Part shown: positions 1 through 10,141 of the stretch, in pieces | How the letters are laid out: every line of letters starts with the position of its first letter | How positions within the stretch are numbered: the stretch's first letter is position 1 | NCBI GenBank assembly: GCA_005788935.1 | Contig: SYAK01000378.1 | Location: 1-10,141, forward strand | Direction: 5' to 3' | Source of the DNA: Pseudomonadota bacterium | Lineage (GTDB): Bacteria > Myxococcota > UBA9042 > PHBI01 | DNA length: 10,141 nucleotides | The notes under the pieces: model-generated | Databases searched by the model: none | Told to the model about the DNA's origin: nothing | The model's input: only the letters and a program-made list of their open reading frames with translations | Translations under genes and position numbers: made by a program

Positions 1-593
1 CCGAGGTCCTGCCGTCGGTCCTGATGCTGGCGGTGGCGCCGCTCGCCCTGGCGTCGGTCGTGGCGCTGGCCCGCATCGGCACGCCGAGCGTCACCCGGCT
101 GCGGGTCGACCACCGGATCGTCGCCGCCATGGTGCTGGCCCCGTTCCTCATCGGACAGCTGGTCGGGCCGCTCGTGCGCCCGACCCTCATCCGGCACGCC
201 GCGGCCGCGGGCTGGATCGACCGCCTCGTCATCGCGGCGCTGGTCTACCAGTCGGTGGGCCAGAGCGTCGCGAGCGGGGTCGGAGACAGCCTCGGGCTGG
301 GACCGCTTGTCGCGACGGCCTTCGGTGCCGGGCTCTTCTTCAGCCTGCTCGCTGGGATGGGGGCCCTCATCGGCCGCATCTTGCGGCTCTCGCGCGAGGA
401 CGCGATCGTGCTGGGCGTCTGCGGCGGCATGAAATCCATGGCCACCGGGCTCCCGATGCTGCGGGTCCTGCACGGGGACAGCCCCGCTGCCGGCCTGCTC
501 GCGGTCCCCCTCATCCTGTACCACCAGGTGCAACTCGTGCTGCTCTCGCTCTGGTCGTCAGCCGCGGCCCGGCGGCACGACGCTCAGCCCTGA
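1..593 (+). CDS. SBF-like (bile acid:sodium symporter family, YfeH-type) transporter, 3' part
   Basis: The frame is open to the left edge, with codons running from base 3, so the true start lies outside the window and about 196 C-terminal residues are visible. The protein is almost entirely hydrophobic with at least five membrane segments. Near its end it carries GMKSMATGLPM, followed by VPLILYHQVQLVLLSLW. These match the conserved C-terminal helices of the SBF-like/YfeH branch (PF13593) of the bile acid:sodium symporter superfamily, where a K-S-x-A-x-G-x-P-M stretch precedes a P-L-x-x-Y/F-H-Q-x-Q-L helix. The family is expected to move organic anions with sodium across the inner membrane; the substrate cannot be read from sequence. 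The stop codon lies inside the last codons of the convergent TetR-family gene (10-base overlap). Family placement is fairly sure, function only general. Confidence 0.78.
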   Translation, partial: EVLPSVLMLAVAPLALASVVALARIGTPSVTRLRVDHRIVAAMVLAPFLIGQLVGPLVRPTLIRHAAAAGWIDRLVIAALVYQSVGQSVASGVGDSLGLGPLVATAFGAGLFFSLLAGMGALIGRILRLSREDAIVLGVCGGMKSMATGLPMLRVLHGDSPAAGLLAVPLILYHQVQLVLLSLWSSAAARRHDAQP

Positions 594-1225
594 CCGTCCT
601 CGGCGGCGGCCTCCGGCCCCTCGGTTGCGGCGAGCCTCGGAATGCGCAGCGGCGCGAGTGCCAGGGCCCACAGCGCACCGAAGCTCTGCTCTGGGTCGCG
701 CCCGGCCGCGTGCCACGCGAGCAGCGCCCCGTCGATGGTGGCAGCGACGAGGGCGACGACCGCCTCGGGTTCGCAGGTCTCGACGAGACCGCGGGCGAGC
801 CCGTCGTGCAGGGTGCGGACGGCGAGCTCATGAACGGGCCGCTGGTGCTGGGCGAGGCGGCTGGCGAGCGGGCTCTCGGTGCTGGCGTCGGCGCGCGCGA
901 GGATGGACGCGAACAATCCGATATCGCTTGGGTTTGCGGCGTAGAAGGTCCGCACGGCCTCGACCCAGGCGTCGAGGAAGTCCACGGGGTGATAGCGCCC
1001 GACGAGCTGCCCGACGAGGTGCGCCTGCTGCCGCGTCAGCAAATCGCCCATGGCCGCCTCGGTGATGGCCGCGGTGTCATGAAAGTAGTAATAGAGCGTA
1101 GGCCGCTTGAGTCCGAGGCGTGACGCGAGCTCGGTCATCGTCAGCCCTTGCGGGCTCTGGCGCATCAGCGCAAAGGCCTCACGGGCGAGGGTCTGACGGC
1201 GGGCGAGGTTGACGGGGCGCGGCAT
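584..1225 (-). CDS. TetR/AcrR-family transcriptional regulator
   Basis: 213 residues, the usual TetR length. The N-terminal helix-turn-helix spans about residues 10-50; GLTMTELASRLGLKRPTLYYYF includes the recognition helix LKRPTLYYYF at 39-48, typical of the family. The remaining ~160 residues form a helical ligand-binding and dimerisation domain with no family-specific signature that I recognise. The start at 1225 was chosen because AGGAG lies at 1232-1236 with a 6-base spacer and the HTH then begins at the normal distance. Longer in-frame starts (1264, 1351) would read through the promoter and operator. A promoter-like pair and a 15-base palindrome sit just upstream, which suggests autorepression. 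It converges on the SBF-like transporter gene with a 10-base overlap. The effector and regulon are unknown; candidates are its own gene and the neighbouring genes that carry the same palindrome. Confidence 0.9.
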   Translation of the reverse strand: MPRPVNLARRQTLAREAFALMRQSPQGLTMTELASRLGLKRPTLYYYFHDTAAITEAAMGDLLTRQQAHLVGQLVGRYHPVDFLDAWVEAVRTFYAANPSDIGLFASILARADASTESPLASRLAQHQRPVHELAVRTLHDGLARGLVETCEPEAVVALVAATIDGALLAWHAAGRDPEQSFGALWALALAPLRIPRLAATEGPEAAAEDGQG

Positions 1226-1245: not shown

Positions 1246-1260
1246 TTGACGGGGCGTCAG
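1246..1260. promoter_or_regulatory. Palindrome TTGACGGGGCGTCAG, probable operator of the TetR-family gene
   Basis: Perfect 5+5 inverted repeat TGACG-N3-CGTCA, ending 20 bases before the repressor start codon and just downstream of its predicted -10 box. A bound dimer here would cover the likely transcription start, the standard arrangement for TetR autorepression. The same inverted repeat recurs at 3160, 3186, 5066, 8012 and 8314. That TetR binds it is inference. Confidence 0.55.
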
Positions 1261-1288
1261 TCATGGGCACGCGACGCGATCCCGTCAA
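1260..1288 (-). promoter_or_regulatory. Candidate sigma70-type promoter of the TetR-family gene
   Basis: Read on the minus strand, TTGACG (1288-1283) is followed after exactly 17 bases by CATGAC (1265-1260). The -35 matches 5 of 6 consensus bases. The -10 is weak (A2, T3 and A5 match). Predicted transcription starts near 1253, inside the palindrome 1246-1260. The spacing is ideal but the -10 is poor, and sigma-factor preferences of this organism are unknown. Confidence 0.4.
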
Positions 1289-1358
1289 GCCTCGCCCGAC
1301 AGACCGCGACGTTTTGGGAGCGCGGACCGACCCGGACCCACCGCGGCCCAACCCCAGA

Positions 1359-1373
1359 CTGACGCTATGTCAG
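1359..1373. promoter_or_regulatory. Degenerate palindrome CTGACGCTATGTCAG between the COG2509 and TetR-family genes
   Basis: CTGAC-N5-GTCAG is a perfect outer inverted repeat; one inner base differs from the TGACG-N3-CGTCA form. It lies in the 189-base gap 1226-1414, about 100 bases upstream of the site at 1246 and about 70 bases beyond the predicted -35. It could be a second operator for the repressor gene. I see no convincing hairpin terminator for the COG2509 gene in this gap. Confidence 0.4.
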
Positions 1374-1414
1374 ATTGGGTGCCGTGTGTGCCGCATCAAA
1401 ATCCGGACAATGGG

Positions 1415-3022
1415 TCAGGCTACGGCGAACGACGCCGCTGGCGCCGCGAGACCCGCGAGCAGCGACTCCGCCACGCGCAGGCCATCGAGCGCCGACGACA
1501 CGATCCCACCAGCCTGGCCCGCCCCCTCGCCCGCAGGAAAGAGGCCAGGAAATCCGGGCGCCTGATGGTCGTCGCTGCGGACGAGCCGCACCGGGCTCGA
1601 GGTCGTCGTCTCGACCCCGATGAGGACGGCCTCGGCGGTGTGGTAACCCCGCATCTTCTGGTCGAACCGGAGAACCGCCCGCGCGATGGCATCGCCAAAG
1701 CGTGCCGGGATAATGGCGTGCAGGTCGACTGACGTCAGGCCAGGCCGAAAGCTCGTCTCGGCTGGCAGCGTTCCTTGCCGCTTTGTCAGAAAATCGGTCA
1801 GGCGCTGGGCTGGCGCGCGATAACCGCCGCCACCCGCCCGAAACGCCGCCTGCTCGAGGTGGCGCTGGAACGCGAGCCCGGCGAGCGGCCCAAGATGGTC
1901 GAGGTCGCCAGGGCGGGAAATCCAGAAGTCGCGCGGCTCGACCGTCGCGACGAGGGCCGCGTTCGCGAAGCGTGTCCCGCGCTTGTGGTTCGACATGCCG
2001 TTGACGTTCAGGCAGTCGGCCTCAGTGGGCGTCGGGATGACGAAGCCGCCCGGGCACATGCAAAACGAGTAGACCCCGCGATCGGCGACCTGGGCCTTCA
2101 GGAAGTACTCGGCAGGCTCGAGGTCGGGGTTCTCCGCGTGCGGCCCGTACTGGATGCGATCGATAAGCGCCTGCGGGTGCTCACAGCGGGCGCCGATGGC
2201 GAAGGCCTTGCGCTCCATCAGCACCCCGCGGGCGTGGAGCCAGCGGTAGACGTCACGGGCCGAGTGGCCGGTCGCGAGGATGACGCCCGGACCCTCGAGG
2301 GTCTCGCCCGACGCGAGGACGACGCCGTGGACCCGCCCACTGTCGGCCTGCAGGAGATCGACGACCTTCGCGTCGTATCGAACCTCGCAGCCGTGTTCGA
2401 CGAGGAAGGCCTCGAGCCGCTTGTAGGCCATGATGATGCGGTTCGTCCCGACGTGCGGGTGGGCGTCGGTCATAATGGACGCAGGCGCCCCGAGCGCCAC
2501 GAGATCTGCGTGGATGCGGTCGATCTCGGGGTCGCGCCGCCGCGTGTAGAGCTTGCCGTCCGAGTAGGTCCCGGCCCCGCCCGCGCCAAAGCAGAGGTTC
2601 GACTCCGGGTTCAGCTGCCCGTGGCTGCGGAGCGCCACGACGTCCCGGTGGCGCGCGACGAGCGCACCGCCCCGGTCGAGGAGAATCGACGGGTGTCCTC
2701 CCTCGAGCAGCCGAAGGGCAGCCCAAAGCCCGGCGGGCCCGGTGCCGACGATGATCGGCATCTTGCCAGGACTCGGCCGTGCGAGGGGCGTGCCGATCCG
2801 GAGTCTGGGCGACTCATCAGGCGGCGGCGCGTCGGCGGTCGTCCAGACCTCGACCGTGAGGACGCGCTTCGGGTTCTTGCCGCGCGCGTCGAGGGAGACC
2901 TTGCGGATGCGAGCCTCGACGATCGCGTCGAGGTGCAGGCCGAGCTGGCCAGCCACAGCGGCGTGGAGCTCGGCGGGCCCGTGTCCGAGCGGCAGCGGGA
3001 GATCACGGACGAGGGTCGTCAT
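1415..3022 (-). CDS. COG2509-type FAD-dependent dehydrogenase (uncharacterised NAD(P)/FAD oxidoreductase)
   Basis: 535 residues, normal for the family. Residues 1-80 are the family's N-terminal domain, with a KVSLDARGKNPKR stretch at 41-53. The FAD-binding Rossmann motif is IIVGTGPAGLWAALRL at 90-104. Other landmarks are SNLCFGAGGAGTYSDGKLYTR at 141-161, ILATGHSARD at 248-257 (second FAD contact), YSFCMCPGG at 318-326 with a CxC pair, and NGMSNHKRGTRFAN at 341-354. A GEGAG stretch near the C-terminus closes the flavin fold. The family is widespread and soluble but its reaction is unestablished, so only a flavin-dependent redox role can be stated. GGAGG lies 4 bases before the ATG. The start codon overlaps the mutY stop as ATGA, so translation is probably coupled to mutY. 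Three palindromes sit 102-179 bases upstream, inside mutY. Confidence 0.9.
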   Translation of the reverse strand: MTTLVRDLPLPLGHGPAELHAAVAGQLGLHLDAIVEARIRKVSLDARGKNPKRVLTVEVWTTADAPPPDESPRLRIGTPLARPSPGKMPIIVGTGPAGLWAALRLLEGGHPSILLDRGGALVARHRDVVALRSHGQLNPESNLCFGAGGAGTYSDGKLYTRRRDPEIDRIHADLVALGAPASIMTDAHPHVGTNRIIMAYKRLEAFLVEHGCEVRYDAKVVDLLQADSGRVHGVVLASGETLEGPGVILATGHSARDVYRWLHARGVLMERKAFAIGARCEHPQALIDRIQYGPHAENPDLEPAEYFLKAQVADRGVYSFCMCPGGFVIPTPTEADCLNVNGMSNHKRGTRFANAALVATVEPRDFWISRPGDLDHLGPLAGLAFQRHLEQAAFRAGGGGYRAPAQRLTDFLTKRQGTLPAETSFRPGLTSVDLHAIIPARFGDAIARAVLRFDQKMRGYHTAEAVLIGVETTTSSPVRLVRSDDHQAPGFPGLFPAGEGAGQAGGIVSSALDGLRVAESLLAGLAAPAASFAVA

Positions 3023-4395
3023 GGGTCCTCCGTGCGAGCGACGTCGAGGGTGGGGAGGGCGAGCTGTGCCGCCTGTGCATAGGCGGCGGTCGAGCGCTTG
3101 CGAGGGCGCTGTTCGGCCGTTTCCTGACGGTTCGGCAGCTGACTGGTCCGAGGTTTTCTCTGACGTCCCGTCAGATGAGCGAAGTCTGACGCGGCGTCAA
3201 CCCGGCTCGCCGCGAGCAGCGCGAGTGACTTGCGCGCGAGCGTCGAGAGCGCGAGCACCCCATCACCCGACACCGGGGCCCACGCGAGACCGTCGTCGAT
3301 CATCCCGGCTTCGATCTGAGTCGACCACGCCCGGGTGTTCGAGGCGGTCCGGACCTCGAGGGTCAGGCTTCGGTGCGTGAAGGCGTGCACGACGTGGCCG
3401 AGCGAGGAACCGCCCGCGAGCGGGACCCCGAGGCGTTCGCCCAGGGAGGCCAGCAGCTCGGACAGCTCGGGCTCCCCTGCCCCGTCCCAGCGAGTCTCGG
3501 GGAGCCCCCAGAGGCCCGCGAGGAGGCCGTCCGCCGGTCGACGCGCGAGCAGCACGAGGTCGGAGCCGGCGTGCGGACGGATGGCGAGCGCGACGCCTTG
3601 GACCGATGTTGGCGCGCGGCGCGGCAGCTTCAGGGGCCAATCGGTCGGACGCCCCGACGCCCGCCCGCGGCAGGCGGGAGCCCACGGACACGCCTCGCAG
3701 GCCGGCCGGGCGGGTGTGCAGACGAGGGCGCCAAGCTCCATCAGGCCCTGGTTGTGGGCGGACGGGTCCTCGGGGCTGACGAGCGCCTCGGCGAGCGTCC
3801 ACAGCCGACGCTTGCCAGCCGTCCCGTCGCTTGGGTCCTCGAGCGCCACGAGGCGGGACAGGACGCGCTCGACGTTGCCATCGACGAGGGGGGCGCGCAC
3901 CCCGAAGGCGATCGACGCGATCGCACCCGCCGTGTAGGGACCGACGCCCGGGAGGGTCCTGAGGACCGACGGATCGCGGGGCAGCTCGCCGCCGTGACGC
4001 TCGGCGACCGCGATAGCGCCCGCGTGAAGCAGCCGCGCCCGACGGTAGTAGCCAAGCCCCGACCAGCGCGCGAGCACATCATCGAGCGACGCGGCGGCGA
4101 GCGTGGCTGGGTCGGGAAAGCGGGCAATGAACGCATGGAAGTACGGAATGACCGTATCAACTTGCGTCTGCTGGAGCATGACCTCCGAGACCCAGACCCG
4201 CCAAGGGGTCGGCGCGTCCCGCCATGGCAGCGCCCGGCGCGCACCCGCGAACCAGCTGCGGAGCGAGTCCGAGAGCCCGCGCCGCGACGCCGCGTCGAGG
4301 CCCTCGGGGTTGGAGGCGGAGTCGACGGAAGACGGGCGGCGGGCGGCGGGCGGGCGCTTCGGGGCGACCTCGGCCTGTCGGATGGTGCGGGGCAT
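3019..4395 (-). CDS. mutY: A/G-specific adenine DNA glycosylase MutY
   Basis: MutY removes adenine mispaired with 8-oxoguanine or G, working with MutM/MutT against oxidative mutation. Seen in the 458-residue form: LPWR at 56-59; SEVMLQQTQV at 70-79 with catalytic Glu71; helix-hairpin-helix LPGVGPYTAGAI at 148-159; VDGNVERVLSR at 171-181 with catalytic Asp172; iron-sulfur cluster cysteines 226, 233, 236 and 242 spaced C-x6-C-x2-C-x5-C; and a C-terminal NUDIX-like 8-oxoG recognition domain at about 264-395, including HAFTHRSLTLEV. All key residues are intact. Oddities are a ~40-residue N-terminal extension and a ~60-residue basic tail (398-458) carrying three palindromes in its DNA. The ATG at 4395 has AGGA upstream; an in-frame GTG at 4434 with GAGGG is a real alternative. 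The stop overlaps the next gene (ATGA), and a VOC gene lies 95 bases upstream on the same strand. Confidence 0.95.
   Translation of the reverse strand: MPRTIRQAEVAPKRPPAARRPSSVDSASNPEGLDAASRRGLSDSLRSWFAGARRALPWRDAPTPWRVWVSEVMLQQTQVDTVIPYFHAFIARFPDPATLAAASLDDVLARWSGLGYYRRARLLHAGAIAVAERHGGELPRDPSVLRTLPGVGPYTAGAIASIAFGVRAPLVDGNVERVLSRLVALEDPSDGTAGKRRLWTLAEALVSPEDPSAHNQGLMELGALVCTPARPACEACPWAPACRGRASGRPTDWPLKLPRRAPTSVQGVALAIRPHAGSDLVLLARRPADGLLAGLWGLPETRWDGAGEPELSELLASLGERLGVPLAGGSSLGHVVHAFTHRSLTLEVRTASNTRAWSTQIEAGMIDDGLAWAPVSGDGVLALSTLARKSLALLAASRVDAASDFAHLTGRQRKPRTSQLPNRQETAEQRPRKRSTAAYAQAAQLALPTLDVARTEDP
3124..3200. repeat. Cluster of three TGACG-N3-CGTCA palindromes inside the 3' end of mutY
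   Basis: Sites are CTGACGGTTCGGCAG (3124-3138, one mismatch), CTGACGTCCCGTCAG (3160-3174, perfect; flanking T and A extend it to 17 bases) and CTGACGCGGCGTCAA (3186-3200, perfect core). Centres are 36 and 26 bases apart. The cluster lies in codons for the poorly conserved MutY tail and 102-179 bases upstream of the COG2509 start codon, so it could be a regulatory region for that gene embedded in mutY. Confidence 0.6.
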
Positions 4396-4490
4396 CGGCG
4401 TTCCTGCGCGGTGTCGTTCCGCGAACATGCGCACTCTAGGCCCTCACGCGCCTCCGGGAAACGGGAAAGCGGCGCCGCGGCCGCGACCCG

Positions 4491-4982
4491 TCAACCTTGC
4501 GCGGACGTCAGGGCGTTGATGACCTCGGGCGGGGCCTGCACGAGCTCGATGAGGACGCCGAGCCCCGAGCCCGGAGACGCGTCGTTGCCCTTGGGATGGA
4601 TGAAGCAGATGTCATGCCCGCTCGCGCCAGGCCGGATGCCGCCCGGGGCCATGCGGACGCCCGCCGCTGTCAGCCAGGTGACCGCGGCCGGGAGGTCATC
4701 GACCCACAGCCCGAGGTGGTTCAGCGGCGGCTCGTCGACGCGCGGCTTGCGGCCCGGGTCGAGGGGCTGCATCAGGTCGACCTCGACCGCGTAGGGCCCG
4801 ACGCCGAGCGACAGGACGGCCTCATCGACATTCTCGCGCTCGCTCGCGAAGTGCTTGACGACCGGAATCCCGAAGAGCGTCGTCCACAGGCCGAGCAGCG
4901 CCTGCTTGTCGGGGCCACCGATGGCGACCTGCTGCAACCCGAGGATCCGGAAGGGCCGTGGCGTCGAAGGCGTCGTGTCCAT
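4491..4982 (-). CDS. VOC-family (glyoxalase / methylmalonyl-CoA epimerase-like) protein
   Basis: 163 residues with two beta-alpha-beta-beta-beta modules: QQVAIGG near 17-23, [11 protein letters not shown] at 64-74, [10 protein letters not shown] at 88-97, and [12 protein letters not shown] at 142-153. Probable metal ligands by family position are Gln18 (usually His), Glu67 or Asp69, His89 and Glu146. This set resembles the Gln/Glu/His/Glu set of Zn-type glyoxalase I more than the His-first set of epimerases. [12 protein letters not shown] at 122-133 is shared with epimerase-like VOC proteins. The substrate cannot be assigned. The ATG at 4982 has only a weak ribosome site; an in-frame GTG at 5036 would add 18 residues that look non-conserved. 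It lies just upstream of mutY on the same strand (95-base gap), and two palindromes lie 84-139 bases upstream. Confidence 0.85.
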
Positions 4983-5065
4983 GCGTCCAGATCTGCCACG
5001 GATCCAGGACGCTGGACAACCGCGTGGCGCAGGCACGGACCGAAAGACCTGCCAGAAGAACAGAC

Positions 5066-5121
5066 TTGACGAACCGTCAGGTCACGACGTCACACGGAGA
5101 CAACGTTCTGACGAATGTCAG
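5066..5121. promoter_or_regulatory. Two palindromes in the divergent VOC / secreted-protein intergenic region
   Basis: The 230-base region 4983-5212 separates two divergent genes and should hold both promoters. It contains TTGACGAACCGTCAG at 5066-5080 (perfect TGACG-N3-CGTCA) and CTGACGAATGTCAG at 5108-5121 (same arms, spacing one base shorter). A further GACGTC lies between them at 5086-5091. The TTGACG arm could also be a -35 box for the plus-strand gene, but I find no good -10 at the right distance. Confidence 0.5.
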
Positions 5122-5212
5122 GCCCTCTGGCGCGTCGGACGGCGACAGGCCACGAGCGGACCGCGCAGGACGCGCGCTTCCGGAGATGGCCCTCGACCGA
5201 AGGAGCCCCGCC

Positions 5213-5698
5213 ATGCGCAGCCGCACCCTCGCCCTCGCCGCCGCCATCGTCACCACCCTCGTCGCGGGCCGCGACACCTCCCCCGCCTTCGCCCGACCGA
5301 CCGCTGTCGTCGCGTCGAGCGCGCGTGCCCCTGCCGCCCGGCTCGCGAAGGGCTGGATCGTCGCGCCGCGCGTCCACCCGCGGATGATCGGCCCGATCGA
5401 CCTCACGAACCACCGCACCGCGCGCGCGGCGGCGCGCATCGAACGCGTCATCCGGGACTACGAGCGCGCCCTCGGCCGCGCAGACCGCCTGAACCTCGGC
5501 TCGCGTCGGCAGATCTCCGACCTGCGACGCGACGTGCTCTTCCTGCGCGGCCTGCTGCAAGGCCTCCGTCGCGACGGTTCGCTCGACAGCCGCGACATCG
5601 GGATGCTCGACGCCGCGATGCTGGACGTCGAGCTTCGACTCGAGGCCCTCGGCCCGCGCGGGTTCACGGCACTCGTCCGCATGGTCAAGGCCCGCTGA
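5213..5698 (+). CDS. Small secreted helical protein of unknown family
   Basis: 161 residues; no family recognised. Residues 1-27 look like a Sec signal peptide: MRSR, then LALAAAIVTTLVAG, then a likely signal-peptidase I site after PAFA. About 30 residues rich in Ala and Pro follow. From about residue 60 to the end the protein is strongly helical, charged and Arg-rich, with ISDLRRDVLFLRGLLQGLRRDG and MLDAAMLDVELRLEALG in amphipathic, coiled-coil-like patterns. There is no cysteine. I infer a periplasmic or exported helical-bundle protein. The start at 5213 has AGGAG at 5201-5205 with a 7-base spacer; longer in-frame starts would remove the signal peptide from the N-terminus. It is transcribed away from the VOC gene and converges on the OmpA-like gene with 16 bases between stops. 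Confidence 0.75.
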   Translation: MRSRTLALAAAIVTTLVAGRDTSPAFARPTAVVASSARAPAARLAKGWIVAPRVHPRMIGPIDLTNHRTARAAARIERVIRDYERALGRADRLNLGSRRQISDLRRDVLFLRGLLQGLRRDGSLDSRDIGMLDAAMLDVELRLEALGPRGFTALVRMVKAR

Positions 5699-5714
5699 GC
5701 GCGGATACCCGCTA

Positions 5715-6401
5715 TCAGATCGCGCAGTCGATCCAGGCGATGAAGGCGCTGCGGTTGATGTCATCCGCCGTGCACGCCGTGTCGCCGCGGCTGCGCTTCC
5801 ACGCGCAGAACGTATCATCGAGCTGCGCGAACTCTTCGCCAAGCCACAGGAGGCCAACCTGCTTGCGGATGTCGGGATCGGCGAAGCGCGTCTCGAGATG
5901 GGTCATGACCGCGCTGGCCCGCCCCTCGGACAACTCGCGATTGGAGTTGGCGCTACCCTCGGGCGAGGCCCGCGCCACGACGAAGAAGAAGCTGGCACCG
6001 CGGCGATCGGCCCACGCAGCGTCGACGAGCGCCATCCCCTGCGGATCGAGTTCGCTCTTGCTCTGGTCGAACTGCAGGATCGAGACGCGGTCCTTCAGCG
6101 GGACGAAGAGCGCGTTGAAGTCGGCATCCGACAGCTCGACGACCTTGGCGGCGTCAGCGGGGCGGCACCCGCGGTCGTCACCGCCGAGCAGACCGCAGGC
6201 GCCCGCGACCCGACGCACGATCTTCTTCAGGTTGGCGTTGCACCAGCCCTCCTCGGCCATCTGCGCGACCGCGACCGGGGCCGCGTCGGGGCTGTAGGCG
6301 GCGAGCTCGGCCTTGGCGTCGCCAAGCCAGCCGTTGACGAAGAAGAGCGGGGCGAGGAGCCCGGTGGTCCAGACGGCAAAAGCGGGAGCGAGCTTCTTCA
6401 T
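5715..6401 (-). CDS. OmpA-like envelope protein with six cysteines
   Basis: 228 residues. An N-terminal hydrophobic segment (about 5-25, then AKA at 29-31) is a signal peptide or membrane anchor. Residues ~105-226 resemble the OmpA C-terminal peptidoglycan-binding domain: VSILQFDQSKSELDPQG at 106-122, NRELSEGRASAV at 154-165, LGEE at 187-190 and INRSAFIAWIDC at 215-226. The Arg that contacts diaminopimelate in OmpA aligns with Arg161, but the matching Asp is Ser146, so canonical binding may be lost. Cysteines are at 54, 69, 79, 199, 210 and 226, an even number suited to three disulfides and unusual for OmpA domains. The ATG overlaps the stop of the VKOR-DsbA gene as ATGA, so the protein is probably made with, and oxidised by, that enzyme. 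The domain call is by motif only; an outer-membrane or periplasmic site is inferred. Confidence 0.72.
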   Translation of the reverse strand: MKKLAPAFAVWTTGLLAPLFFVNGWLGDAKAELAAYSPDAAPVAVAQMAEEGWCNANLKKIVRRVAGACGLLGGDDRGCRPADAAKVVELSDADFNALFVPLKDRVSILQFDQSKSELDPQGMALVDAAWADRRGASFFFVVARASPEGSANSNRELSEGRASAVMTHLETRFADPDIRKQVGLLWLGEEFAQLDDTFCAWKRSRGDTACTADDINRSAFIAWIDCAI

Positions 6402-7762
6402 GGCTGGTCTCCGTTGGCCGCCGGGGCGGCTGGCGCAGGGGCAGGCTTCTGGCGGCGGGCGAAGTCGGGCGAGAGCCAGGCGTTCAGCATGTACTCGAGG
6501 CCGAGGTCGGTGTCCTCGTCGCACAGGCGGCGCCCGTCGACGTAGAGCTGCGGGGTCTGGACGGGCATCGCGTTCTTGACCGCAAAACGCAGCGATTTTG
6601 TGACCTTGGCCTTCGCGGTCGCCGTCCCGAGGCAGCCCTTGATGCCTGGAAAGCGGCTCAAGAGCTCGGCGCGGAGCGCCTTGTCCTCGGCCTTGTTGTC
6701 GGGCTTGCCGCTCGAGGCCGCGCGCTCGGACTTGGCGAGCTCGATGAGGCGGGTCTGGTCGGCAAAGGCCCAGTCGAGGATCTGCTGCGCACCCTCGGGC
6801 GCGCACAGGATCGCCTCGCTGATGGCGCAGGCGCCCGGGTGGGGAGCGTCCTTCACCATCCAGTTGCAGGCCGTGTCGAGCGGGAAGAGCAGCGCTTCGA
6901 GCTTCAACCGGGGCGCGAAGCCGCTCGCCGCGAGGCGCTTGTCGAAGGAGCGGCACGAAGGGCAGAGGGGATCGAGGACCGCGATCGACGGGACGGCACT
7001 CGGATCGTTGTGAGCGCCGAGCTTGACGAGCACCCCCGCCTCGTCGGTCGTGTCGGTCAGGAAGCCGCAGCCGTCCATCGTCGGACGGTCGTCCGGGACC
7101 GACGCCGTATAGAACAGGTAGGCGGCCGCCACGAAGCCGACGCCCGCGCCGAAGTTGACGAGCCAGAAGCGGATGACGCTGCCCTCCGTGGCGGGCGAGG
7201 CGCGCCACCACGCGAGGATCGACATCAGGAACAGGACGCCCGAGGCGACGTAGATACCGATGCAGACCTCGCAGAAGGCGCCGAGCTCGGTCGCGGCAAT
7301 GTTGCCGTAGATGACGGACATGCCGACGGGCAGGAGTGACCCGACGAAGAGGAAGAGGCCGTCCCGACGCGTCGGGGTCCCGACAGCACGCGAGAGCGTG
7401 TAGGCGGTGAAGAACGCGAACACCGCGAGGGCGAGCAGGCTGACCGGGATGCCACCCCAGTGCTCGGTGCGGTTGAACGAGCTGTAGACCGAGTACATCG
7501 CGGCCTTGCAGCCCGACGCCCCGACGACAGCCTCGCCGCCTGGCAGGACGGAGCACGAGACCGCGTGCGTCTGCCCGTCGAGGTGGGCGATGAAGTCGCG
7601 CGTCGAGACGCTCGACGAGACGAGGCCGAAGATGGCGCCGATCGCCGCGAGGAGCCACCAACCGCGCGGGTTGCGATGCGGCGCCGGTCCAGAGGGCGCC
7701 TGGCGGGTCGGCGCTGGCTCGGGCGGGGGCGGGTTCAGATCAGGATCGGGTGCTGCGGTCAC
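6398..7762 (-). CDS. Fused VKOR-DsbA (vitamin K epoxide reductase family / thioredoxin-like) disulfide-forming protein
   Basis: 454 residues. A Pro-rich cytoplasmic stretch (9-33) precedes a VKOR domain with about five membrane helices (36-50, 104-122, 136-153, 160-185, 196-218). Loop cysteines are Cys70 and Cys85, followed by the family's SVYSSF and GIPVSLLAL; the quinone-side motif is CEVC at 164-167. From about 235 a periplasmic DsbA-like domain follows: LDPLCPSC at 263-270 with redox pair Cys267/Cys270, and the cis-proline loop QTPQLYVDG at 402-410. The role is to oxidise periplasmic thiols and pass the electrons to quinone, doing DsbA and DsbB work in one chain. Cysteines at 232, 299, 312, 320, 377 and 414 are extra. 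The GTG start at 7762 has GGAGG with a 5-base spacer. The stop overlaps the OmpA-like gene start (ATGA). Confidence 0.9.
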   Translation of the reverse strand: MTAAPDPDLNPPPPEPAPTRQAPSGPAPHRNPRGWWLLAAIGAIFGLVSSSVSTRDFIAHLDGQTHAVSCSVLPGGEAVVGASGCKAAMYSVYSSFNRTEHWGGIPVSLLALAVFAFFTAYTLSRAVGTPTRRDGLFLFVGSLLPVGMSVIYGNIAATELGAFCEVCIGIYVASGVLFLMSILAWWRASPATEGSVIRFWLVNFGAGVGFVAAAYLFYTASVPDDRPTMDGCGFLTDTTDEAGVLVKLGAHNDPSAVPSIAVLDPLCPSCRSFDKRLAASGFAPRLKLEALLFPLDTACNWMVKDAPHPGACAISEAILCAPEGAQQILDWAFADQTRLIELAKSERAASSGKPDNKAEDKALRAELLSRFPGIKGCLGTATAKAKVTKSLRFAVKNAMPVQTPQLYVDGRRLCDEDTDLGLEYMLNAWLSPDFARRQKPAPAPAAPAANGDQP

Positions 7763-7772
7763 GTGGGCCTCC
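7763..7772 (-). promoter_or_regulatory. Strong ribosome binding site selecting the GTG start of the VKOR-DsbA gene
   Basis: On the minus strand GGAGG (7772-7768) is followed by CCCAC and then GTG. The optimal spacing favours this non-ATG start over the upstream in-frame TTG at 7843, which would add 27 residues read through the intergenic gap. The 117-base gap 7763-7879 also holds a weak partial palindrome (CGACCGGGCGTCAA, 7830-7843) and no clear promoter. Confidence 0.7.
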
Positions 7773-7879
7773 CGGAAGCGTGGGCGAGGACCGAGCGGCC
7801 ACCCGCGGAGGCGGTTCAGATCCCAAATCCGACCGGGCGTCAAGGAAGTCGTCAGGTTCGTGGTGATGACTGGCGTGAT

Positions 7880-10141
7880 TCAGGGCCATAGGCGGAGGCG
7901 ATGGTCCTCGCGGCGCCGCGCGGCTTCCGCCGCCTCGTCGAGCGGGACGCGGCCCTGGTCGCCACCGAGATGGTAGAGGCCGGCGTCGACCGCGAGCGCC
8001 GTGCTCCTGACTTGACGATCCGTCAGCCTGATGGCGAACGCGTGCCGGAGCGTGACACCGCGCGGCGCGTCCGCGAGGAAGAAGGTGCCGCCGACGACCG
8101 CGTGATCGGCCTGCCCGACGCGACGGTCGCCCGCGAAGACGTGCACGAAGAGGCCGACCGAGCGCGGGACCGGTCCATCGACGCGCAGCCACAGCTCGCC
8201 GTGAAGCAGTCCATCGGCATCGGGCCCGCTGAAGCGGGCGGCCTCGAAGGCGACAGGCAAGGCGAAGCGGGCGTCGATGCGGCGCGCGTCCGACGGTGGC
8301 GGCGCGTCAAGGATTGACGTTCCGTCAGGATTCTCGACGACGGGTGCCTCGGTGGCTTCCGTCGGCAGGGTGAGGGCCGTCAGGCCGAGAACGAGCAGCG
8401 GTCCAGCGAGCAGGGCGAGGGCCGACGCACCCTCGCCGAGGCGCGCGCGGCGCCACCAGACGAACAGGGCCGCGATGACGAGGCCGAGGGTCGACGCGAG
8501 CCCGAGCAAGGCCGAGTTCGGCGAGAAGCGGAACGCGAGACGATGCTCACCAGCGGGCAGCGTGACCCCGAGGAGGCGGTCGACGCCATCCGGACGGCGT
8601 GTTTCACAGGACTCCGACTCGGACGAGGCGAGCGGGCAATGCAGGACCTGCCAGCCCGGATGATGGTTCTGGTTCACCCACAGGCGGCCCGGTGACGCAA
8701 GTCGGGCCGCGACGGTGAGGCTGTTCGGGCGCCACGCGACGATCCGGACCTCGCCCGAGGCGGGCGCATCAAGGCCGACCTCGGAGCTGAGGTCTCCCCG
8801 AAGCCGCGGCGACATGACGACCGGATAGGCCTCGCCACAGCTGATGGAGCCGCGGTTCGAGGCGGCGAAGAGGCCGGCGAGCCAACGGTTGCCGCGGGCC
8901 TGCGCGAAGGGCTGGTCAACCTCGGGAGGTGCAGGCACGAGCGCGATGCCTCCCGTGAGGCGGTGAAAGGCCACGACCTGGCTCGCGCTCGCGACGAGCA
9001 GGCTCGAGGCGACAAGCCCGACCCCGACGCGTGACGCGCGCGGCCCCCGTCGCTCGAGCCAGCCAAGCAGCACACACGCGCCCGACAGGACGAGCGGAAG
9101 CGCGAACAGCGCGGCAGGCAGGAGAAATCGCTCGGGATAGCGGAGCGTGCTGAAGAGCGGCAGCTCGCGCATCCACGAAAATGGCCCTTCCCCGTAATGA
9201 TAGCCCGTCGCGAGCGCCACCGTCAGGGCGAGCATCGCGGCCGGGAGGCGGACCTCACGGCGCAGGAGCCCTGGGAGGGCGAGCGCGAGATAGACCGGAA
9301 GACCGATGTGGTAGCGCCCTGGCAGGTCACCTGTCGCCTCGGTCCCGGGCATGGCGAAGGCCATCGCCGCAAGCTCGCCGAGTCCGTGCCCGGGCGTGCC
9401 GGCCATGACGCGCGGGCTCCGGGCGAGCTCGGCGAGGATCGGCCAGAGGCGGAAGGCCGCACCCGCGACCATGACCGCCCCTAGCAGCGCGCCGCGACCG
9501 AGGAAGCGGCCCCAAGCGCGGCGGGAGGCGTCGCGCGGGGCAGCTCCGAGGGCCTCGACGGCCGCGAGCAGAATGGTGATCGGCGTCGCATACGTGCCGC
9601 CGAAGCCGATCATGAAGCCGAGCGCGGCCCCCGCCGTCACGAGCCCGCGACGCGAGCCCCGCATGGCGCCGTGGGCGCCGACGAGGACCCACGGTACGAG
9701 CGCGAAGCCGAGGAACTGGACCCAACCGAGCGCATAGGCCGTCGCAAGGTAGGCATTGAGCGCAAAACATGGCGCAAGCCACACCGCAAGCCAGGTGACG
9801 CGCGGCGATCGGGGTGCGCGCAGCAGCAGATAACGCCAGGTCCCCTCCAGGCCGAGGACGAGCATCGCGAAGGTGATGAGCGGCGCCGCGAGCGCAGCAC
9901 CGAGCAGCAGCGACAGCAGGAACGGAGGCGCTGCAAAGCGCGTCTGGGGATTGCCGAGCGCGTAGAGTCCGCCACAGGACCACGGGTCCCACAGCGGCAG
10001 CTCGCCGTGGTCGCGCAGGCTGCGGACGGCGTGATCTTCATACGCAAGCAGAAAATGTGCGTCATGAAAATCGTTGAGCTGTCCCGCCTGCCCAAGCGCG
10101 ACCCACGTCGCAGCGAGTGCCAGCAGCGAGAACCACCCAAG
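7880..10141 (-). CDS. YfhO-like multi-spanning membrane protein with C-terminal beta-sandwich domain (5' end outside window)
   Basis: The frame stays open from the stop at 7880 to the right edge, giving 753 visible residues; an ATG at 9865 is internal. An extracytoplasmic loop near the visible N-terminus reads LPLWDPWSCGGLYALGNP, typical of YfhO/GT-C-like proteins, and is followed by about ten membrane helices. FSTLRYPERFLLP (visible ~330-342), PGWQV (~495-499) and GVTLPAGEHRLAFRFSP (~525-541) match the YfhO family (PF09586) pattern of a beta domain before a last helix. After a final helix pair, the last ~130 residues form a further beta-rich domain with GLFVHVFAGDRRVGQADHAVVGG, like the tail of some family-39-type glycosyltransferases. 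In characterised Gram-positives YfhO takes part in glycosylating cell-wall polymers; the substrate here is unknown. The gene lies 117 bases upstream of the VKOR-DsbA gene on the same strand. Confidence 0.82.
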   Translation of the reverse strand, partial: LGWFSLLALAATWVALGQAGQLNDFHDAHFLLAYEDHAVRSLRDHGELPLWDPWSCGGLYALGNPQTRFAAPPFLLSLLLGAALAAPLITFAMLVLGLEGTWRYLLLRAPRSPRVTWLAVWLAPCFALNAYLATAYALGWVQFLGFALVPWVLVGAHGAMRGSRRGLVTAGAALGFMIGFGGTYATPITILLAAVEALGAAPRDASRRAWGRFLGRGALLGAVMVAGAAFRLWPILAELARSPRVMAGTPGHGLGELAAMAFAMPGTEATGDLPGRYHIGLPVYLALALPGLLRREVRLPAAMLALTVALATGYHYGEGPFSWMRELPLFSTLRYPERFLLPAALFALPLVLSGACVLLGWLERRGPRASRVGVGLVASSLLVASASQVVAFHRLTGGIALVPAPPEVDQPFAQARGNRWLAGLFAASNRGSISCGEAYPVVMSPRLRGDLSSEVGLDAPASGEVRIVAWRPNSLTVAARLASPGRLWVNQNHHPGWQVLHCPLASSESESCETRRPDGVDRLLGVTLPAGEHRLAFRFSPNSALLGLASTLGLVIAALFVWWRRARLGEGASALALLAGPLLVLGLTALTLPTEATEAPVVENPDGTSILDAPPPSDARRIDARFALPVAFEAARFSGPDADGLLHGELWLRVDGPVPRSVGLFVHVFAGDRRVGQADHAVVGGTFFLADAPRGVTLRHAFAIRLTDRQVRSTALAVDAGLYHLGGDQGRVPLDEAAEAARRREDHRLRLWP
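8012..8026. repeat. Palindrome TTGACGATCCGTCAG inside the YfhO-like gene
   Basis: Perfect TGACG-N3-CGTCA inverted repeat preceded directly by an extra half-site CTGAC (8007-8011). On the coding strand it spells CTGACGGATCGTCAA, within codons for LTDRQ in the terminal beta domain, about 250 bases upstream of the VKOR-DsbA start. It shares the WWC centre with the sites at 5066 and 8314. Confidence 0.6.
8305..8328. repeat. Composite palindrome: three alternating half-sites inside the YfhO-like gene
   Basis: TTGACGTTCCGTCAG (8314-8328) is a perfect copy. The preceding CGTCAAGGA makes its left arm also pair with CGTCAA at 8305-8310, so CGTCAA-GGA-TTGACG and TTGACG-TTC-CGTCAG share one arm. The codons encode a Pro/Asp-rich linker between the last membrane helix and the terminal beta domain, where amino-acid constraint is low. 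Confidence 0.6.

What the first reader, a model, noticed from the sequence alone, without database searches (positions are those of the whole stretch)
1246..8328. Dispersed 15-base palindrome YTGACGNNNCGTCAR, strongly over-represented
Exact TGACG-N3-CGTCA occurs at 1247, 3161, 3187, 5067, 8013 and 8315. Near-copies occur at 3124 (one mismatch), 1359 and 5108 (GTCA arms kept), and a no-spacer TGACGTCA at 1730. With ten fixed bases and about 70% GC, independent bases would give roughly 0.01 exact copies in 10 kb, so six is far above chance. Four copies are in coding DNA, in different reading frames, in variable tails or linkers, so selection or spread acts on DNA, not protein. Several share an asymmetric core, CTGACGGWWCGTCAA. 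The copies cluster upstream of minus-strand genes (TetR-family, COG2509, VOC, VKOR-DsbA). It could be the operator of the local TetR-family regulator, a HIP1-like genome-wide iterated palindrome, a methyltransferase or structural-protein site, or a very small mobile repeat. I cannot name a described element with this sequence.
Basis: partly seen in the sequence, partly recalled or inferred. Interest (0 to 1): 0.72.

Follow-up and report, generated by a model that had tools for sequence, protein, structure and literature searches.

The report
Repeated gapped palindrome in uncultured myxobacterium
A 13-base mirror-like DNA word occurs six times in ten thousand bases of what seems to be an uncultured myxobacterium, far more often than chance or protein coding allows, so it is probably a docking site for a DNA-binding or DNA-marking protein, although which one, and whether the word fills the whole genome, could not be tested.

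Summary
TGACG-N3-CGTCA occurs exactly six times in 10,141 bases, with no copy at spacers 0-2 or 4-12. Expected: 0.009 from base composition, 0.086 from the window's own arm counts. Four copies lie in genes; none of 10,000 synonymous resamplings gave more than two.

The word is rare elsewhere: 0-29 copies per genome in 377 genomes of the phylum of a 'Myxococcales' MAG, 0-10 in 198 of a Desulfosarcina phylum, against 592 per Mb here. No close relative was among the 377 (best VKOR identity seen 54%), and the window's own genome is not held, so genome-wide or local stays open.

At 8315 the word differs from relatives by in-register substitutions without a gap, which argues against a mobile repeat. 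A 79% relative keeps compatible residues at 8013 and 8315.

Best reading: a DNA recognition site iterated at HIP-like density, read by a dimeric binding protein or methyltransferase; a promoter regulon is the main rival. No paper with the motif strings was found.

The parts
1247..1259 (.). exact copy TGACG-GGG-CGTCA, 22-34 bases before the assumed TetR start
1360..1372 (.). one-mismatch copy TGACG-CTA-TGTCA, upstream of TetR
3125..3137 (.). one-mismatch copy TGACG-GTT-CGGCA, in the mutY tail, 109 bases before COG2509
3161..3173 (.). exact copy TGACG-TCC-CGTCA, reads LTGRQ in the mutY tail
3187..3199 (.). exact copy TGACG-CGG-CGTCA, reads VDAAS in the mutY tail
5067..5079 (.). exact copy TGACG-AAC-CGTCA, between the VOC gene (-) and an ORF without a family (+)
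5109..5120 (.). related TGAC-N4-GTCA, spacer one base shorter
   Evidence: read
8013..8025 (.). exact copy TGACG-ATC-CGTCA, reads LTDRQ in the membrane-protein gene; same residues in a 79% relative
8297..8309 (.). one-mismatch copy TGGCG-GCG-CGTCA
8315..8327 (.). exact copy TGACG-TTC-CGTCA, reads PDGTS on a motif N-[PAS]-[DN]-G kept in five of seven related loci
584..1225 (-). TetR-family regulator gene, candidate reader of the palindrome (not shown)
   Evidence: Pfam TetR_N on the longer ORF 584-1351; BetI-like below cut-off

Best explanation
The palindrome is a sequence-specific recognition site in double-stranded DNA: two 5-base arms read by a symmetric dimer (or by a methyltransferase acting on both strands) with an unread 3-base centre. 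In this uncultured, probably myxobacterial lineage the site is iterated at about 0.6 per kb, within the range reported for cyanobacterial HIP sequences. Copies arise in place by point mutation and are kept where protein constraint is weak (gene tails, linkers, leaders), rather than being copied in as a unit. Shown: non-chance frequency, strict arms and spacing with a free centre, a DNA-level rather than protein-level cause, no gap at one site against seven relatives. Inferred: that the density holds outside these 10 kb, that relatives show the older state at that site, and that a dimeric protein or methylase reads the word.
For: Six exact copies against 0.009 or 0.086 expected, only at spacer 3 within N0-N12. 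Codon control: 4 in genes, never more than 2 in 10,000 resamplings. Spectrum: exact 6, one mismatch 3, two mismatches at background. Best 5+5 gapped palindrome P 5e-10 against 1e-5 for the best of 44 ten-kb chunks. Site 8315 differs by four substitutions and no gap from the related locus L250 (AATCCTGATGGGACGCCG against AATCCTGACGGAACGTCA). Relative P0242 (79%) keeps LTDRQ at 8013 and D-G-S-S at 8315, where its T-to-S change can fall on the free centre. LTxRQ is found in 4 of 360 listed homologs: the window's own two, and P0123 and P0242, third and second in their lists. 592 per Mb lies in the 'around 500-2500' per million given for HIP1 and alternate HIPs (PMC4390886 section 2.3).
Against: The own genome could not be counted, so all density rests on 10 kb. 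No dense genome among 377 and 198 searched. With one-mismatch sites included, copies cluster (P 0.002-0.003), and 6 of 9 lie 28-171 bases upstream of an assumed gene start, which suits promoter sites better than an even HIP; the six exact sites alone do not cluster (P 0.14 and 0.31). Relative P0122 has LSERQ and LTKRR, which cannot be the exact word. 4 LTxRQ against 1.9 expected from composition, two of them the window's own, is not significant by itself. The motif is gapped and 60% GC, unlike most alternate HIPs, and 592 per Mb is below the 1000-2000 that the same paper's discussion calls general.
Confidence: 0.48

Rival explanations
1. Operators of one transcription factor (the local TetR protein or a more global regulator) that controls several transcription units of this region; the palindrome is frequent only here or only at promoters.
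For: 6 of 9 exact or one-mismatch sites lie 28-171 bases upstream of assumed TetR, COG2509 or VOC starts, in places two or three together. A TetR-family gene is adjacent. A 13-15-base palindrome is a normal size for such operators (general knowledge).
Against: Sites 8013, 8297 and 8315 are 257-559 bases upstream of VKOR and inside another gene. Six perfect sites of one local repressor in 10 kb would be unusual (general knowledge). No operator of a relative was available for comparison; one search gave only weak matches (best E 4e-6).
Confidence: 0.33
2. Very small mobile or copied repeat that inserted six times.
For: Arms are identical and copies dispersed.
Against: Site 8315 has no gap against seven related loci, the centre differs at every site, and no direct-repeat family of 16 bases or more covers a site. 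At 8013 the window loop is one to four residues longer than in the seven loci, so that site alone is inconclusive.
Confidence: 0.07
3. RNA hairpin or terminator element.
For: The word can form a stem of at least 5 pairs with a 3-base loop; two of six 27-mers fold with z below -2. One copy (5067) meets a loose terminator scan.
Against: Folding of the six 27-mers spans -4.2 to -9.4 kcal/mol with z from +0.43 to -2.73. Terminator-like sites number 2 against 3.3 in shuffles. No Rfam family reached its gathering score.
Confidence: 0.05
4. Chance or codon usage.
For: The arms are common words here (30 and 29 copies), and GACG-N3-CGTC occurs 7 times against 1.7 expected from its arms.
Against: All null models above.
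Confidence: 0.02

Closest known systems
HIP1 and alternate HIP sequences of cyanobacteria (PMC4390886; seen: abstract, sections 2.3 and 2.6, first of three parts of the discussion)
   Same: Palindrome, strongly over-represented, about 500-2500 per million bases; a model in which it is made in place by mutation and repair.
   Different: HIP core words there are ungapped and 5-8 bases, mostly 75-100% GC (TCGATCGA, 50%, is named as an exception), tied to a methyltransferase of that sequence and counted in whole cyanobacterial genomes. Here: 10 fixed bases with a free N3, 60% GC, no methylase seen, 10 kb only, myxobacterial relatives.
matS sites of MatP, GTGACRNYGTCAC (PMC6907758, passages seen)
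   Same: 13-base palindrome with TGAC...GTCA arms, bound by a dimer.
   Different: TGAC and GTCA are 3 apart in matS and 5 apart here; matS is on average one per 35 kb in one macrodomain, here one per 1.7 kb.
TetR-family operators (general knowledge)
   Same: Short inverted repeat near a TetR gene.
   Different: Many copies, several inside unrelated genes; binding untested.
Paired TGACG-N3-CGTCA words in IMG/VR viral contigs
   Same: Same core word.
   Different: 79 of 110 listed pairs (found by a pattern that allows only distances 18-48) are 21-23 or 33 bases apart, often with G...C flanks; many contigs are near-duplicates.

Membership tests
HIP (highly iterated palindrome) | Palindrome over-represented across the whole genome at about 500-2500 per Mb | tested here: inconclusive
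   592 per Mb in 10 kb; own genome not held; distant genomes 0-29 copies each
HIP (highly iterated palindrome) | Ungapped word of 5-8 bases, mostly 75-100% GC | tested here: not met
   Gapped N3, 10 fixed bases, 60% GC (PMC4390886)
HIP (highly iterated palindrome) | Methyltransferase for the sequence in the same genome | not testable with these tools
   No genome held; no methyltransferase family among the nine window ORFs scanned with Pfam
matS/MatP | GTGACRNYGTCAC | tested here: not met
   Spacing between TGAC and GTCA is 5, not 3 (PMC6907758)
TetR operator of the local regulator | Sites near the regulator's own start | tested here: met
   1247 and 1360 are 28 and 141 bases upstream of the assumed start
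TetR operator of the local regulator | Protein binds the site | not testable with these tools
   Needs a gel shift or DAP-seq
Mobile repeat (REP/MITE-like) | Copies inserted as a unit, shared flanks | tested here: not met
   No gap at 8315; no repeat family of 16 bases or more covers a site; 8013 inconclusive
Rfam RNA element | Match to a curated family | tested here: not met
   0 matches at gathering score

The most novel reading that the evidence does not exclude
A HIP-like system outside cyanobacteria: an unstudied, probably myxobacterial lineage whose chromosome carries thousands of copies of a gapped palindrome with ten fixed bases and a free three-base centre, longer than the HIP core words described in PMC4390886, made in place by biased mutation or selection and read by an unknown methyltransferase or chromosome-organising protein.
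Probability: 0.4. Interest if true: 0.72.

Novelty: new variant of a known kind. Interest (0 to 1): 0.5.

Why it matters
What HIP sequences are for is called a mystery in the paper read (PMC4390886), which treats cyanobacteria. An independent, gapped case in another phylum would help to separate the methylation model from a structural-protein model. If it is instead a regulon, it gives an operator for an otherwise unknown regulator of an uncultured group.

Tried and rejected
Looked for a dense genome: 4 genomes of fetched loci (0, 0, 3, 5 copies), 377 of one phylum (336 have at least one, maximum 29 in 6.7 Mb with control 1; I did not tally the control column), 198 of another (112 have at least one, maximum 10). 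Four of the higher-count genomes were looked at (29, 17, 15 and 14 copies; one with 18 and another with 17 were not): scattered words, plus a 26-base-period triplet in G164.

Looked for other iterated palindromes in pieces of five related genomes and L005. In 175 kb of G111 several words reach very small P because there is more sequence (4-base arms: CGTC-N0 106 against 36, P 1e-21; 5-base arms: best P 9e-9), but at about 3- to 13-fold excess among the words listed, against 70-fold here. G197 was spoiled by N runs in that table. The 44 ten-kb chunks come from four related genomes (G168 pieces were too short), L001, L005 and seven Bacteroidota loci.

Closest genomes by VKOR: 49-54% for the top five (70 of 377 with a match; only the best few candidates per genome were scored); all 16 genomes of one order and all 52 of one class carried handles already listed.

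Viral contigs with paired words: tight pairs, in several of the seven loci looked at inside an ORF; no tie to the window seen. RNA hairpin and terminator: weak. TetR by solved structures: weak matches only. Membrane-protein homologs in 15 chosen genomes: 4 of 15 matched at 31-36%, so the phylum was searched (7 of 377 at E 1e-110 or better, two candidates scored per genome).

First codon control had a wrong frame for VOC; it was repeated with the right frame with the same result.

Full report
What is there. The window is 71% GC. Where a source names its protein relatives, they are mostly Myxococcota, Myxococcales or Deltaproteobacteria. It seems to be part of a 51,298-base contig, because the rows for its own MutY and membrane proteins (no source shown) give that contig length (inference). 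No genome is held for it.

The palindrome. Six exact TGACG-N3-CGTCA words, with arms fixed, spacing fixed and centre different at every site (GGG, TCC, CGG, AAC, ATC, TTC). Five of the six fit the asymmetric form TTGACG-N3-CGTCAG on one strand or the other (4 on +, 1 on -); the sixth is CTGACG...CGTCAG. Null models reject chance: base composition 0.009 and first-order Markov 0.01, the window's own arm counts 0.086, dinucleotide shuffles for up to two mismatches and synonymous resampling. In 44 ten-kilobase chunks of other fetched DNA (four related genomes, L001, L005 and seven Bacteroidota loci) the best gapped palindrome with 5-base arms reaches P 1e-5 against 5e-10 here. In longer stretches of G111 smaller P values occur, at lower fold excess.

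DNA, not protein. The coding copies use two frames. In one, the word reads L-T-x-R-Q. Among the 360 listed homologs (the best 120 of each of three searches that found 1,380, 7,915 and 291), LTxRQ is in four: the window's own MutY and membrane proteins, and P0123 and P0242, the third and second of their lists. Composition alone predicts 1.9, so this is suggestive, not proof. In P0242 both membrane-protein sites stay compatible with the exact word although neighbouring residues have changed. Against this, P0122 has LSERQ and LTKRR, which cannot encode it exactly. The DNA of these relatives could not be read.

Origin at one site. The membrane-protein gene was aligned with seven loci. At 8315 none of the seven has a gap within the span of the word; five keep N-[PAS]-[DN]-G there, and L250 differs from the window by four substitutions over 18 bases. 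The simplest account is that the word was made in place there. At 8013 the window loop is one to four residues longer than in the seven loci (two in four of them), which leaves that site undecided.

Distribution outside. Counts in 377 genomes of the phylum of G001 are 0-29 (336 of 377 with at least one), and 0-10 in 198 genomes of the phylum of G003 (112 of 198); G001 is the genome of a MAG titled Myxococcales, G003 that of Desulfosarcina alkanivorans. Both draws were even samples of larger groups. No close relative was seen among the 377 (VKOR at most 54%); the 198 were not compared by protein. So these searches show that the word is rare elsewhere; they do not tell whether it is dense in the window's species.

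Position. Nine sites with at most one mismatch are clustered (4 neighbouring gaps under 120 bases, P 0.002; 3 under 50, P 0.003), and 6 of 9 are 28-171 bases before an assumed start. The exact six alone do not cluster significantly (P 0.14 and 0.31). The starts are my choice, and the upstream count was made after seeing the sites.

Reading. The facts call for a recognition site of a symmetric reader. I prefer the iterated (HIP-like) form because copies also fall inside genes, because exact copies outnumber one-mismatch copies, and because the rate lies in the range given for HIP sequences in PMC4390886, though below the 1000-2000 per million that its discussion calls general. Promoter clustering keeps a regulon as a serious rival. 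Membership in HIP is not claimed: the gap and the GC content do not fit, and genome-wide count and methylase are untested. No paper held the motif strings (six strings, 0 papers in an open-licence library; a subscription paper could be missed). Three further searches were seen as short listings with abstract starts (20 of 1,489, 12 of 624 and 12 of 1,814 papers) and showed no such element.

Noticed in passing
L109-L201 (viral contigs): 93 viral stretches carry two TGACG-N3-CGTCA words close together (pattern limits distances to 18-48); distances of 33 (34 pairs), 23 (23), 21 (13) and 22 (9) make up 79 of 110 pairs, often with G...C flanks. In L119 and L144 they lie in the N-terminal coding part of an ORF with similar neighbouring ORFs.
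   Followed up: partly
G164:C237:3478-3542: Three exact TGACGTTCCGTCA words at a 26-base period, iteron-like.
   Followed up: no
window 1209-1219 and 1246-1256: TTGACGGGGCG occurs twice just before the assumed TetR start or at its first codons, once as part of the full palindrome and once running into CGGC (read).
   Followed up: no
window 3019-3199: The MutY protein has a long, poorly conserved tail that carries three of the sites; relatives P0122 and P0123 also have long tails with similar short motifs.
   Followed up: partly
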